Source of the DNA: Dokdonella sp.
GTDB taxonomy: Bacteria > Pseudomonadota > Gammaproteobacteria > Xanthomonadales > Rhodanobacteraceae
DNA: 32,947 nucleotides
NCBI GenBank assembly: GCA_016712865.1
Contig: JADJQH010000007.1
Span: 1-32,947 of the forward strand
Reading direction: 5' to 3'
Shown here: positions 5,526-32,651 of the stretch, piece after piece
Position numbering within the stretch: the stretch's first letter is position 1
How the letters are laid out: each line of letters opens with the position of its first letter
The notes under the pieces: model-generated
Told to the model about the DNA's origin: nothing
The model's input: only the letters and a program-made list of their open reading frames with translations
The model's database searches: none
Translations under genes and position numbers: made by a program

Positions 5526-5698
5526 ATCGCCCTGCCCCGGCTCCCGATGCGCCTGGCGCGATCGAAGGCTTGTGAGAATTCGGGGAAGGTGGCGTGCGGA
5601 TGGTTGCGAAACCAGGTCCAGAGGGCGAGTAATGCTTCGCTGGATATTCTTTGCGGGGGGGATACTTCGGATACTGCGGGCGTGATAAAATACTGCAT
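5522..5698 (-). CDS. Small hypothetical phage protein (58 aa)
   Basis: A 58-residue frame beginning MQYFITPAVSEVSPP and ending RRIGSRGRAI. Its TGA overlaps the ATG of the helicase gene in an ATGA junction, and an AGGA lies upstream of the ATG at 5698. The central part (LLALWTWFRNHPHATFPEF, FDRARR) is amphipathic and helix-rich. The family is not recognised. The overlapping junction suggests translational coupling to the helicase, perhaps as a loader or accessory factor, but that is inference. Confidence 0.6.
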   Translation of the reverse strand: MQYFITPAVSEVSPPQRISSEALLALWTWFRNHPHATFPEFSQAFDRARRIGSRGRAI

Positions 5699-5743
5699 TG
5701 GGTCAATGTCCTATGGTGTTAGGGTATTGGCAAGACGTGCCGG

Positions 5744-5763
5744 GAGGCTGTTAGCGCAGCCTC
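5744..5763 (-). promoter_or_regulatory. Hairpin in the leader of the helicase operon
   Basis: GAGGCTG (5744-5750) and CAGCCTC (5757-5763) form a 7-bp perfect stem with a 6-base loop, about 45 bp upstream of the 58-codon gene. No T run follows in either direction, so it is more likely a leader-RNA structure or protein site than a terminator. Confidence 0.4.
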
Positions 5764-5786
5764 ACCGGTGCGCACAAGATAGCATG

Positions 5787-5811
5787 AAACCCGCTGTCAT
5801 GGCGGGTTTTT
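5787..5811. terminator. Rho-independent terminator, probably bidirectional
   Basis: AAACCCGC (5787-5794) pairs with GCGGGTTT (5802-5809) around a 7-base loop and is followed by T on the plus strand. It lies immediately downstream of the minus-strand gene ending at 5814, where the trailing T run is short (TTT). It would separate the 6-10 kb minus-strand genes from the helicase operon. Confidence 0.7.
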
Positions 5812-5813
5812 CA

Positions 5814-6008
5814 TTACTTAGTAGGCTTTATTTTCGGGTAAACGCAAGCGCTCCCGATATAAAAGCAATCATCCAAAGGGTATTTTTTTAGATACTCAAC
5901 CATGTAAGCAGAGGCAATTTTCCGGCTCTCATGCTTTTTTGACTTTACGACGGCAATGGTTGAGTCGTCGAAGTTTATCTCTAACTCATACCAGAATTTT
6001 TTAGCCAT
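5814..6008 (-). CDS. Small hypothetical phage protein (64 aa)
   Basis: Start chosen at ATG 6008 (MAKKFWYELEINFDD), because a strong GAGGGAGAA ribosome binding site lies directly upstream and the preceding gene stops at 6010. The protein is lysine-rich with alternating beta-like and helical segments (STIAVVKSKKHESRKI, YMVEYLKKYPLDD). The family is not recognised. A terminator follows the stop directly, so this is the last gene of its transcript. Confidence 0.65.
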   Translation of the reverse strand: MAKKFWYELEINFDDSTIAVVKSKKHESRKIASAYMVEYLKKYPLDDCFYIGSACVYPKIKPTK

Positions 6009-6009
6009 T

Positions 6010-6264
6010 TCATTCTCCCTCTTCGTGATAAACCACAATCTCAAACAGGTCCGCTTGATCAATAGCGGCCTGTCGCTGGCGTTGCAGGTCGCCTTTGCTG
6101 TGCGCCTTGGCGACCGCGCAAAAGTGCTTTTTCTCCAGCATCAATTCCTTTTGCGCCCGGTCAGCAATAGCGCCTTGCAACTCGCGCTCGGCATCGCTGC
6201 GGGCCAGGCTATCGGAGTATTCGGCAATCAAGCCTTTCAGCTTTTCAGTTTGGTCAGGGGTCAT
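6010..6264 (-). CDS. Small coiled-coil hypothetical phage protein (84 aa)
   Basis: Start placed at ATG 6264 (MTPDQTEKLKGLIAEY) with AAGGA just upstream. A longer frame would run back into the tRNA-like RNA. Nearly the whole protein is charged and helical (DAERELQGAIADRAQKELM), consistent with a coiled coil, and it ends in an acidic tail (YHEEGE). The stop is coupled to the ribosome binding site of the next gene. The family is not recognised. Confidence 0.6.
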   Translation of the reverse strand: MTPDQTEKLKGLIAEYSDSLARSDAERELQGAIADRAQKELMLEKKHFCAVAKAHSKGDLQRQRQAAIDQADLFEIVVYHEEGE

Positions 6265-6282
6265 TTTAAAATCCTTGTTGTT

Positions 6283-6438
6283 AGGTGCTACTTGCCGGAG
6301 TCGAACCGGTGACATGGTGGCGCCCGGCATTTCAGACGGGTCCCTTGTGGTTCAGGGATCGATTTACCACAATGCCCTATAGTTGCTTACACGTAGAGGC
6401 AACCCACTTCTTAGCCCCTCCTGGAGCGCCCAAGTAGC
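6283..6438 (-). ncRNA. tRNA-like RNA element (T-arm and acceptor-like stem), about 153 nt
   Basis: On the minus strand the 3' part reads CCGG-TTCGACT-CCGG, an excellent T-arm with the TTCGANT loop, followed by CAAGTAGC-A-CC, an acceptor 3' strand with a partial CCA tail. The matching 5' strand GCTACTTG is found not 70 but about 150 bases upstream (6431-6438), giving a perfect 8-bp closing stem. Inside are further stems: GGCGC/GCGCC next to the closing stem, GTTGC/GCAAC, and TTGTGGT/ACCACAA. I could not fit a normal D-arm or anticodon arm; the CTGAAAT loop resembles a Phe anticodon loop but its stem has a mismatch. It starts 1-2 bases after the stop of the upstream gene. It may be an atypical long tRNA-like RNA, a decayed tRNA, or a captured tRNA 3' half used as an attachment site. 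Confidence 0.5.
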
Positions 6439-6439
6439 G

Positions 6440-7249
6440 TCAAGCCGCAATCTGGTATTCATCGCCGTCCCCTGACCCGCAGCTATCGACGACGGCGGCG
6501 CCGCCCACGGCCCTCTCGGTCAGCAGGTCAAGTACCCATATCCAACCCAGCCGCCGATGGTCGTAATTGGATACGTGCTCTAAAATGAATTTCTTGGCAT
6601 TTTTTCGGGTGATCCAATTGGTTTCCCGGTCTCCCTTATTTGGATTTACATACATTTTATGGTGTTCAACAATAAGCCAGCCTTTCTCAATCCAGCGGCT
6701 TATCACACTGTCGTTATATCCCATGCGCCGTGCAAATTCTGAGGCGTTGATGATTTCAACGCGGGTTTTTCTGACATTAAGCCGGGTCAGTTGGCATTCA
6801 ATCCCGCGAAACGATCTTGCAAATCCAGCTATTTTAAGCTTCTTTTGAATTTGTCGCAGTGAGCTTTCCCCATAGCGTTCTAGAATATCGTTTTCCTCTT
6901 CAGTCCATGGCCTTTGGAATCGGTCTATGGCTATCATCGGCGGTAACTTCAGGTTCTTGCGCGCGCGCTCTTTCAGTGATCCAACCGGAATACCGCTTTC
7001 AGCCGACAGCCGATCCAGCTCCCGCAAACTGCGGTTCTGATAAATCCGACGAATGCGATCATCCCACTTGTCGTACTCGTACTTCTGTCCAGCCGCTAAT
7101 CGCTTGCGAACGCCGAGAACTTTGGCTTTCTGGTTGATCGTTCTGATTTCCCTGCCGGTCTTTTCGGCAATAGGCCGTGCGCCGTGTTCAGGGTACAAAT
7201 CCCGAACTAGCTTGATCTCCCAATCTTCCCATTTTTTATAACTCATCAT
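6440..7249 (-). CDS. Myb/SANT-like helix-turn-helix repeat protein
   Basis: 269 residues from ATG 7249, which overlaps the preceding stop as ATGA and has GGAG upstream. The N-terminal two thirds contain three similar tryptophan-containing helical units: WEDWEIKLVRDLYPEHGARPIA, WDDRIRRIYQNRSLRELDRL and WTEEENDILERYGESSLRQI, the last being a typical Myb-like repeat. Each is followed by a basic recognition-like helix (INQKAKVLG, LKERARKNL, IECQLTRLN). The C-terminal part (ASEFARRMGYNDSVISRWIEKGW) looks like a further winged or excisionase-type HTH. It is likely a DNA-binding regulator. Target unknown. Confidence 0.7.
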   Translation of the reverse strand: MMSYKKWEDWEIKLVRDLYPEHGARPIAEKTGREIRTINQKAKVLGVRKRLAAGQKYEYDKWDDRIRRIYQNRSLRELDRLSAESGIPVGSLKERARKNLKLPPMIAIDRFQRPWTEEENDILERYGESSLRQIQKKLKIAGFARSFRGIECQLTRLNVRKTRVEIINASEFARRMGYNDSVISRWIEKGWLIVEHHKMYVNPNKGDRETNWITRKNAKKFILEHVSNYDHRRLGWIWVLDLLTERAVGGAAVVDSCGSGDGDEYQIAA

Positions 7250-7473
7250 GATGCGCTCCAATCTGGCGCTTCCCAACTGGGCGCATAATGGGCGATTTCA
7301 TCGCCGTCAACGCCGTTCAGGCAATGCGCGGCCAGTTTATCGCGGATGAGTTCAATCCGCTGTTCCAGTTCCAGTAGCCGCCGGGCATTTCTGAAACAAG
7401 CGCCATAACACGCGCAATCGACGGGCGCGCAAACAAGGCAGTGTTGAATATCGCGGGCTTCTTCGGGGGTCAT
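7246..7473 (-). CDS. Small cysteine-rich phage protein (75 aa)
   Basis: Both ends overlap neighbours by four bases (ATGA), a strong sign of a real gene in a coupled operon. The first half has a tight Cys cluster, HCLVCAPVDCACYGACF (five Cys and one His), which could bind zinc or an iron-sulphur cluster. The second half is a Leu/Arg-rich helix (NARRLLELEQRIELIRDKL) followed by an acidic/aromatic tail. The family is not recognised. Confidence 0.7.
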   Translation of the reverse strand: MTPEEARDIQHCLVCAPVDCACYGACFRNARRLLELEQRIELIRDKLAAHCLNGVDGDEIAHYAPSWEAPDWSAS

Positions 7474-15810: not shown

Positions 15811-17403
15811 TTACGCCTCTTCTACCTTCATCCATGCGCGCCTTGTCGTAATCTCATAATCAATAGCGCCGACCGTCCATGACTGCATTCCATCAAAAAC
15901 CGTGTCATTCGGATGCAGGTTAGGATTAATATCACACTCCGCAAAATTCTTGAGTTCTTTGTCGAATCCAGTGCGATAGACGCCGGCCAGTGTTACCGAT
16001 TGCGCAGAGAAAGAGACTGGAATAAGCCGACCACGTACTTTTATTTTACCAGAGCGCGGCATTCTGTCGGAGTCAATATCCCACATGAGCGCTTGCAGGA
16101 ATTCGCCCATCGTTTCGCTGCCGTTTGAATCGCGCAAACCGACGTAAATGGCCAATCTCCCATCATTGGCTTTTCTGGCATATAGATCGTCCAAAATTGC
16201 CGATGATGAATTCGGAATAACAACATCAATCCATGTCGATTGACCCAGACGGCGCTGGCATTGAATGATGGAAAATGGATATTCAATAATATCGCCTCCG
16301 GTTATATAGAGGCGATAGACTATATTTAAGGCTGGCGTTGTACTTAAAGTGGGAGCGATTGGCTTTAATGTGGTGCTTGGAATCCCTAGCTCAAATCCAA
16401 GCGAGAGGCTTGGCGCTTGTAAAATAACACGGATTGTTGGGATTCCAAGGCCGTATTCCAGCGCCAGCCCTGGCGGCTCAACAATGACCGCAGGCGGAGG
16501 CTCCATTAACGCTAGTGCATAGCAATCTTCCGTGTGATTCGCGGACCACGATAGACTCCCTGACGAATCAAACACCCATAATGTTTTGCTGCTATCGACG
16601 GGACCGGCGACGTAGATATTTCCATCCTGATCGAGTTGCAGCGCACGAACGCCAGAAATAGACGTAATCGGAAATCCGCCAGTGGTTATTTCCGTCCCGC
16701 TTGAGTTGTATTTCTTGACGTACCCAAATCCGCAAACGTAGATATACCCATCCGCGCCAGCCGTAATGGCGCGGTCTGTTTCTATATTATCCGCCGACCA
16801 TTGCAAAGTTCCTGAGCTATTGTATTTGCGCATCGTATAAGTCCCGTTCGATGCGCCGCACGTATAAACATTGCCTGAATCATCAACAGCAATGCCGTTG
16901 ACGGTGGCCCCGTGATTAGCGGTCCACTGTTGAGTGCCTGAGCTATTATACTTGCGAGTGGTAATGCTACTCGATACTCTTCCGCCCGTGTAAACATTTC
17001 CAGCGGAATCCATGGCCACGGCAAACACATAATCGCCATGGTCAGCGGACCACGACAAAGTACCGGATGATGTATATTTCCGAGTGGTCTTGCTATCAAT
17101 GCCCGTGGCGCGCCCGCCGCCGATACAAACATCCGTCGAATTAGCCGAAACCGCGTAAATGGTTGTTCCGTGGTTTTTATTCCATTGCAGAGTTCCATTT
17201 AAGTATTGTCTAAGTCCACCATTTCCACCGGTTGCATTTCCAACGCCAGCACTATATAAAAAGCTGTTGATGGAGTCTGTGGAAAGTCCGTAAATAGCAG
17301 CGCTTCTGGCAATAGAATCAATCGACGATCCAGCAAAATCATAGCGTCGGATATTGACGTTGGTTGCGGTGGCAATGCCAGCGGTATAGACGTAACTCGT
17401 CAT
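15811..17403 (-). CDS. Beta-propeller tail protein, copy 2
   Basis: 530 residues. The first 300 hold about six repeats of 40-45 residues built on 'tRKYnSSGTlqWsAdHG...aiavDssGNvYtcG', typical of SBBP/PQQ-like beta-propeller blades. Next comes a hinge of repeated PPGLALEYGLGIPTI / PSLSLGFELGIPS phrases, then a domain (WIDVVIPNSSSAILDDLYAR, LAIYVGLRDSNGSE, GEFLQALMWDID, GKIKVRGRL, FAECDINPNLHPND) that looks like a tail-hub or tip module. It overlaps the upstream paralogue by ATGA. The propeller is probably exposed and binds a ligand on the host surface. Confidence 0.8.
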   Translation of the reverse strand: MTSYVYTAGIATATNVNIRRYDFAGSSIDSIARSAAIYGLSTDSINSFLYSAGVGNATGGNGGLRQYLNGTLQWNKNHGTTIYAVSANSTDVCIGGGRATGIDSKTTRKYTSSGTLSWSADHGDYVFAVAMDSAGNVYTGGRVSSSITTRKYNSSGTQQWTANHGATVNGIAVDDSGNVYTCGASNGTYTMRKYNSSGTLQWSADNIETDRAITAGADGYIYVCGFGYVKKYNSSGTEITTGGFPITSISGVRALQLDQDGNIYVAGPVDSSKTLWVFDSSGSLSWSANHTEDCYALALMEPPPAVIVEPPGLALEYGLGIPTIRVILQAPSLSLGFELGIPSTTLKPIAPTLSTTPALNIVYRLYITGGDIIEYPFSIIQCQRRLGQSTWIDVVIPNSSSAILDDLYARKANDGRLAIYVGLRDSNGSETMGEFLQALMWDIDSDRMPRSGKIKVRGRLIPVSFSAQSVTLAGVYRTGFDKELKNFAECDINPNLHPNDTVFDGMQSWTVGAIDYEITTRRAWMKVEEA

Positions 17404-32324: not shown

Positions 32325-32651
32325 CTAACTAATTCGGTATTGTTCGATGTCAGCGACATCTTTTAGCCAGTAGGGGCGCTTTCCCCGACCCGTCCAGGTC
32401 CGGCCGTTATCGGGATGGCGGTACTTGGGAGCGCCTGGCGCGCGCGTCTTCTTGCCGCTGGCCAGAACATCCTCCAGCGAAACACCCAGCGCGGCGGCCT
32501 TGGCTTCCAGTTCGGCGCGCATCGCTTTCAGGATTTCATCCTTGCGCCGGTTCAGTTCGGCGCGGTATTCAGCCAGATCGGCCTCGGCTTCAGCAATTAA
32601 TTCCAAGATCGATTCTGTTGCCAACTCTTTGCAGTCCACATCCACCTTCAT
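32325..32651 (-). CDS. H-NS-family nucleoid-associated protein
   Basis: 108 residues, intact. The N-terminal 60 residues are a coiled coil (ILELIAEAEADLAEYRAELNRRKDEILKAM). The C-terminus KYRHPDNGRTWTGRGKRPYWL (about 76-96) is the H-NS DNA-binding motif with the TW-TGRGKRP minor-groove loop. Such proteins silence AT-rich, foreign DNA; carried by a mobile element, they can silence the element itself or replace the host's H-NS. AT-rich sequence with TA-rich steps lies directly upstream (32652-32720), a natural autoregulatory target. Confidence 0.93.
   Translation of the reverse strand: MKVDVDCKELATESILELIAEAEADLAEYRAELNRRKDEILKAMRAELEAKAAALGVSLEDVLASGKKTRAPGAPKYRHPDNGRTWTGRGKRPYWLKDVADIEQYRIS

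What the first reader, a model, noticed from the sequence alone, without database searches (positions are those of the whole stretch)
6283..6438. Long tRNA-like RNA with T-arm, partial CCA and an 8-bp closing stem
The 3' end is a textbook T-arm and acceptor strand, but the exact 8-base complement of the acceptor lies about 150 bases away, twice a normal tRNA. The interior folds into several stems of its own (GGCGC/GCGCC, GTTGC/GCAAC, TTGTGGT/ACCACAA) and lacks a recognisable D-arm. The element fills the gap between two genes almost exactly. It may be a phage tRNA-like regulatory RNA or an aminoacylation decoy.
Basis: partly seen in the sequence, partly recalled or inferred. Interest (0 to 1): 0.7.

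Follow-up and report, generated by a model that had tools for sequence, protein, structure and literature searches.

The report
Phage RNA with tRNA-like ends
Between two phage genes lies a spacer whose two ends can pair into a clean copy of the upper half of a transfer RNA, with twice the usual length in between and no sign of the parts that read the code; it may be an unusual processed RNA, a decayed tRNA gene or a coincidence, and no relative was found that could settle it.

Summary
The ends of the reported element are real, on the minus strand (6438 to 6283). GCTACTTG (6438-6431) is the exact complement of CAAGTAGC (6294-6287), next to a 4-bp T-stem with a canonical TTCGACT loop and an ACC end: a 12-bp tRNA 'top half' (8+4 instead of 7+5) closed over 152 nt. 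That form occurred in 0 of 5000 shuffles of the window and in 0 of 794 kb of fetched, mostly viral loci. The spacer is non-coding and fits the element. The interior is not supported: it folds no better than shuffled sequence, no canonical D-arm or 7-nt anticodon loop is seen, and ARAGORN (default cut-off) and Rfam find nothing. With 20 nt or more of flank the predicted fold drops the closing helix altogether. No homologue was found, so covariation is untested. No host tRNA shares the 3' half, against an attachment-site relic. The nearest known kind is T4 rnaC, a 139-nt stable RNA; nine sequences show the same T-arm plus acceptor closure with compensatory changes, but its model does not match the window. 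Verdict: perhaps a tRNA-like element of the rnaC kind; decay or chance are nearly as likely.

The parts
6431..6438 (-). 5' strand of the closing (acceptor-like) helix, GCTACTTG
   Evidence: sequence; paired with 6287-6294 in the MFE of the exact element, but not once flanks are added
6287..6294 (-). 3' strand of the closing helix, CAAGTAGC
   Evidence: exact reverse complement of 6431-6438
6295..6309 (-). T-arm CCGG-TTCGACT-CCGG (4-bp stem, canonical 7-nt T-loop)
   Evidence: sequence; in MFE and centroid and kept with flanks; strict 8+4 descriptor once in window, 0 of 5000 shuffles
6283..6286 (-). A73-C-C then T: partial, not complete, CCA end
   Evidence: sequence
6414..6427 (-). hairpin in the D-arm position (GCTCC-AGGA-GGGGC), not canonical
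   Evidence: MFE of the exact element only; interior not better than shuffles
6381..6404 (-). hairpin in the anticodon-arm position with a 12-nt loop; no assignable anticodon
   Evidence: MFE
6311..6376 (-). long branched arm in the variable-arm position
   Evidence: MFE; not supported by shuffles
6440..7276 (-). upstream ORF (278 aa; weak PHROG matches to D5-like regulator and HNH endonuclease families)
   Evidence: 28% match in a related phage contig
6010..6264 (-). downstream ORF (84 aa, resembles phage DsbA-type transcriptional regulator), start at 6264
   Evidence: phrog_639 E 5.8e-7 and sub-threshold Pfam Phage_DsbA, both for the 106-aa form; homologue in L101 starts within one codon of this place

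Best explanation
The minus-strand transcript of this phage operon carries, between two genes, the upper half of a tRNA: a 12-bp acceptor/T stack with a canonical T-loop and an ACC end. A 121-nt interior that is not a decoding tRNA body replaces the D and anticodon arms. Most likely the host's tRNA maturation enzymes recognise this top half: RNase P cuts at 6439/6438, just behind the upstream stop codon, and 3' trimming and CCA repair follow at 6284. The result would be a tRNA-like RNA of about 155 nt, and the two mRNAs would be separated. This is the plan of T4 rnaC, not a homologue of it. Shown: sequence, complementarity, position in a non-coding gap, lack of a decoding core. Inferred: transcription, formation of the closing helix in the cell, processing, stability and any further role.
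For: 8+4 top half: 1 in window, 0 in 5000 shuffles, 0 in 794 kb of fetched loci; looser form 1 in 600 shuffles. In IMG/VR a same-acceptor pattern without a T-stem requirement matched twice, both overlapping long ORFs and without a T-stem by eye. The 175-nt gap stands in an operon where 9 of 11 neighbour gaps are 49 nt or less or overlaps (my choice of ORFs), and the downstream start at 6264 is supported by a homologue. The ends of the element lie 1 and 18 nt from the genes. T4 rnaC shows that phages make long RNAs with this closure: 93.4% of cells paired, 20 of 49 pairs with changes on both sides, 0 of 500 shuffles as high.
Against: With 20, 60 or 120 nt of flank the MFE has 0 of 8 closing pairs. 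Interior folding is no better than shuffles (277 of 500; z -1.13), whereas rnaC has z -4.57. A49-C65 mismatch; no encoded final A; no homologue found; the spacer is absent beside three homologous genes; no promoter called near it. ARAGORN at default cut-off, also with introns, and Rfam at E up to 10 are silent; at a lowered cut-off one of 8 calls in 5901-6900 ends at 6287 but starts at 6530, not 6438. The descriptors were post hoc and the number of windows screened before this one is unknown to me.
Confidence: 0.38

Rival explanations
1. Remnant of a phage tRNA gene: a once normal tRNA whose body was replaced or expanded by insertion and drift, leaving the acceptor and T-arm; no present function.
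For: Perfect top half with non-tRNA interior; no decoding loop; no comparable element in 77 methylase-bearing loci or in fetched related phage contigs; two near-identical loci of that set carry a true tRNA-Thr (L004, L006).
Against: No remnant of a D-arm consensus or U8 next to the acceptor strand; 12 perfect pairs kept while everything else is lost would be odd for neutral decay.
Confidence: 0.26
2. Coincidence: a T-arm lookalike in a spacer with a chance 8-nt complement upstream.
For: Interior like shuffled sequence; closing helix lost from the MFE with flanks; a T-arm with NCC alone is expected 0.065 times per shuffled window; a single sequence, without relatives; selected by eye from an unknown number of windows.
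Against: 0 of 5000 shuffles reach the 12-bp form, and it sits in one of the two long non-coding gaps of this gene run and fills it.
Confidence: 0.3
3. Attachment-site relic: the 3' half is a copy of a host tRNA 3' end used by a phage integrase.
For: A tRNA 3' end without a tRNA body is typical of att sites (L133 in Ilyobacter shows one beside an integrase). The contig is only 32,947 bases with no end repeats and may lack the integrase.
Against: No host tRNA with this 3' end: longest shared run with the loci of all 44 host tRNA matches is 11 nt; pattern only in the window among 59 family genomes, no match in the 84,980-species collection. No integrase among the 32 ORFs scanned, of 166 ORFs of 60 aa or more. 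The exact 5' complement would be accidental.
Confidence: 0.04

Closest known systems
T4 rnaC (species 1 RNA), AF158101 70908-71046
   Same: Phage RNA nearly twice tRNA length (139 nt), closed by an acceptor-like helix with a T-arm at the 3' end and no decoding core; shown here on 9 sequences (T4 and 8 relatives) with compensatory changes. Transcribed, role unknown (passages of PMC9697503, and PMC3014915).
   Different: Its covariance model does not match the window. rnaC is strongly folded (z -4.57), lies in a tRNA cluster and has matches in 710 phage records; the window element is poorly folded, solitary and without relatives found.
tmRNA (tRNA-like domain)
   Same: acceptor plus T-arm, no normal D stem, long interior (recalled knowledge)
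   Different: 156 nt instead of roughly 350 (recalled); no Rfam match at E up to 10 and no tmRNA call by ARAGORN at default cut-off
canonical phage tRNA, including class II and intron-bearing tRNA
   Same: acceptor helix, T-arm, order of arms in the MFE of the exact element
   Different: 12-nt loop at the anticodon position, no U8 or D-loop consensus, 8+4 stack, not found by ARAGORN at default cut-off even with introns allowed

Membership tests
tRNA | acceptor/T stack of 12 bp with T-loop TTCRANY and G53-C61 | tested here: met
   8+4 bp by complementarity, TTCGACT; in the MFE only without flanks
tRNA | D-arm with U8, A14, GG | tested here: not met
   position 8 is G; the hairpin at 6427-6414 has a 4-nt loop
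tRNA | 5-bp anticodon stem with 7-nt loop | tested here: not met
   12-nt loop in the MFE; ARAGORN none at default cut-off, with or without introns; Rfam none at E up to 10
tRNA | aminoacylation or 3' CCA | not testable with these tools
   only ACC encoded
T4 rnaC family | match to a covariance model of rnaC | tested here: not met
   R2 finds T4 rnaC (159.7 bits) and nothing in the window at E up to 10
T4 rnaC family | long RNA closed by acceptor-like helix plus 3' T-arm | tested here: inconclusive
   complementary ends and T-arm present, but closing helix lost from the MFE with flanks and no transcript known; architecture only, no homology
tmRNA | match to tmRNA models | tested here: not met
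tRNA-type attachment site | 3' end identical to a host tRNA gene | tested here: not met
conserved structured RNA | compensatory changes in relatives | tested here: inconclusive
   no relatives found

The most novel reading that the evidence does not exclude
A phage-specific tRNA-like RNA that arose independently of T4 rnaC, built from a tRNA top half around a non-decoding body. Host RNase P and CCA enzymes would cut it out of an operon mRNA, and it would act in trans, for example as a decoy for tRNA enzymes or for tRNA-cutting defences.
Probability: 0.16. Interest if true: 0.7.

Novelty: new variant of a known kind. Interest (0 to 1): 0.35.

Why it matters
If real, it would be a second, unrelated case of a long phage RNA with tRNA ends and no decoding core, after T4 rnaC, whose role is still given as unknown (passages). 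It would suggest that phages make such RNAs more than once, and it would be directly testable with RNase P and CCA-end sequencing. If not, it is a clean example of how a tRNA end can look convincing without one supported interior helix.

Tried and rejected
Coding reading of the 3' half: ORF 6010-6330 is open through the T-arm. A first tblastn even aligned its residues 2-99 to L101, but the stretch before the homologue's start runs through stop codons; without composition correction the alignment begins at residue 26, and the homologous ORF starts within one codon of 6264. So I take the spacer as non-coding. Three 24-nt matches in class genomes lie in loci without tRNA genes; I take them from memory to be a tolQ-like gene, a chance match. 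The phage LpeD match is the T-arm of a tRNA called by ARAGORN. The Ilyobacter match is a tRNA 3' end between two recombinase genes. Two IMG/VR matches to a spaced pattern overlap long ORFs and lack a T-stem by eye. In the 77 methylase-bearing viral loci ARAGORN found only a tRNA-Thr in L004 and L006; in the capsid relatives it was run on L083-L088 and L101-L109 with no call, not on L089-L100. The strict descriptors found nothing in the pooled loci. The single-sequence model of the element gave, outside the window, only E 1.1 for that tRNA-Thr (two loci) and E 4.1 in L031. Searches with the neighbouring proteins gave no close relative. ARAGORN at lowered cut-offs gives 235 and 241 tRNA calls over the window and is worthless there.

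Papers: the searches returned nothing; those listed 1, 3 and 1 papers, which I judged by title and start of abstract as not on such RNAs and did not open. led to the two T4 papers, of which I saw only passages. Whether rnaC's tRNA-like closure is already in print I cannot say beyond these searches; most subscription papers are not held.

Full report
What is there. The window is the whole of contig C7 (32,947 bases) of a 3.75-Mb bacterial assembly and has no terminal repeat. Its genes are those of a tailed phage: portal, capsid/protease, tape measure, helicases, methylase, RecT-like and Gam-like proteins. The element lies on the minus strand. From 5' to 3' it reads: GCTACTTG (6438-6431), a 121-nt interior, T-arm CCGG-TTCGACT-CCGG (6309-6295), CAAGTAGC (6294-6287), ACC (6286-6284), T. 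The 8-bp helix and the 4-bp T-stem make a 12-bp stack, the length of a tRNA top half, in an 8+4 instead of a 7+5 split; A49 (6310) is left unpaired.

Is it more than chance? A descriptor with a T-arm (at least 4 of 5 pairs, G53-C61), NCC and a perfect 7-bp complement within 250 nt finds the element once, 1 match in 600 dinucleotide shuffles of the window and 0 in 782 kb of fetched loci; the T-arm with NCC alone is expected 0.065 times per shuffle. The stricter 8+4 form gives 1 in the window, 0 in 5000 shuffles and 0 in 794 kb. Both were written after seeing the element, so these figures flatter it. The pooled loci are mostly viral, partly overlapping, and include one plasmid stretch and one bacterial stretch; the descriptors missed the ARAGORN-called tRNAs in that pool (L004, L006, L134), so they are strict rather than sensitive.

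The interior does not pass. Whole-element z is -0.67 with short flanks and -1.13 with exact ends; the plus strand gives -0.25. With the ends fixed, 277 of 500 shuffled interiors fold at least as well. With 20, 60 or 120 nt of flank the MFE keeps the T-stem (4 of 4 pairs) but none of the 8 closing pairs; the 5' strand pairs with 6413-6406 instead. This is the strongest computed result against the tRNA-like reading, although minimum-energy folds of long RNAs are uncertain.

The gap. Among 12 minus-strand ORFs that I picked between 853 and 9908, 9 of 11 gaps are 49 nt or less or overlaps; the exceptions are 175 nt here and 288 nt at 5526-5813. The downstream ORF could be read from 6330, through the T-arm. 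Its homologue in a related phage contig (L101, 39% over 74 residues) starts within one codon of the 6264 start, and there a mechanical ORF overlaps it upstream, so no such spacer exists. The homologues of the upstream gene, 28% in L101 and 27% in a Sphingobium plasmid, are followed by an overlapping ORF and by a CDS 16 nt on. So the spacer is non-coding and particular to this phage as far as seen.

Known RNA families. ARAGORN at default cut-off finds no tRNA or tmRNA, nor with introns up to 3000 nt. At a lowered cut-off one of 8 calls in 5901-6900 uses this 3' end (6287) but starts at 6530. Rfam has no match in the window at gathering scores and none at E up to 10 for 6200-6500.

Relatives. 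None found: phage records (only a T-arm match), plasmids, E. coli genomes, 147 genomes of relatives with a longer query (one 40-nt match outside the element), 398 genomes of the order, 369 of the class (three 24-nt matches taken as chance), a single-sequence covariance model over 87 sources (best other matches E 1.1, a true tRNA-Thr) and 99 genomes, and the 3' end in IMG/VR. Genome counts include the window's own. Covariation is therefore untested, and that is a main weakness.

Attachment site. The host has 44 tRNA matches, several seen with an encoded CCA. The longest run shared between the element and the fetched loci of all 44 is 11 nt. The 3' end pattern occurs only in the window among 59 family genomes and has no match in the 84,980-species collection. 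No integrase was seen among the 32 ORFs scanned, but the contig may be incomplete.

The closest kind. T4 annotates rnaC, 139 nt, next to its tRNA genes. Its 3' end is a T-arm followed by an acceptor-like strand whose complement is at the 5' end. I took T4 and eight relatives, mainly the most divergent of the 60 rows listed out of 710 records. For a structure taken from the T4 MFE plus two inner pairs, 93.4% of cells are paired and 20 of 49 pairs have changes on both sides (0 of 500 shuffles), with slid versions far lower. In the closing helix (74.6% of cells paired) two pairs change on both sides; two U-U positions in eight sequences are U-A and C-G in phage phiR1-RT. The T-loop itself varies in some relatives. 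rnaC folds at z -4.57; Rfam gives only sub-threshold hits there. Two papers say that rnaC is transcribed and of unknown role (passages only: PMC9697503; PMC3014915). A model of rnaC does not match the window, so the element is not an rnaC; it shares only the plan.

How it would work. RNase P needs little more than an acceptor/T stack and a 3' RCC(A) end, and CCA enzymes read the same half (established knowledge, recalled). The element offers both, placed so that cleavage would fall one base behind a stop codon and leave the next gene its own ribosome-binding site (AAGGA at 6276-6272). I hold processing into a tRNA-like RNA as the most likely single reading (0.38), coincidence at 0.30, a decayed tRNA gene at 0.26 and an attachment relic at 0.04.

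Judgement. The ends are striking, the body is not, and there is one sequence only. Interest 0.35; if the novel reading held, about 0.7.

Noticed in passing
window 5696-5815 (+), in the 288-nt gap 5526-5813: Three strong hairpins in a row, the last with a U-tract on the + strand: z -5.81, 0 of 200 shuffles as stable. No Rfam match at gathering scores, no phage match; among 70 genomes (own included) two others have short matches (24-30 nt) at the last hairpin. A far better structured RNA candidate than the one given, either a + strand RNA or a leader of the minus-strand helicase gene.
   Followed up: partly
L153 1409-1547 (T4 rnaC) and nine-sequence alignment A2: T4 rnaC has an acceptor/T-arm closure with compensatory changes across T4-like phages, no Rfam hit above threshold, and overlaps a gene annotated as tRNA-Lys in phage G4507, probably a mis-annotation.
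   Followed up: partly
window 32325-32651 (-): Phage gene with an H-NS C-terminal domain (PF00816, E 9.3e-10): a possible phage-borne silencer-like DNA-binding protein.
   Followed up: no
window 16786-17089 (-), gene 15811-17403: Segments matching several places of a related phage contig, in a protein with a beta-propeller-repeat PHROG match.
   Followed up: no
L101 3518-5738: In the related phage contig the homologue of ORF 6440-7276 stands next to ORFs that look like an excisionase and a tyrosine integrase (naming by eye).
   Followed up: no
L133 (Ilyobacter polytropus plasmid pILYOP01): A bare tRNA 3' end between two recombinase genes, presumably an attachment site.
   Followed up: no
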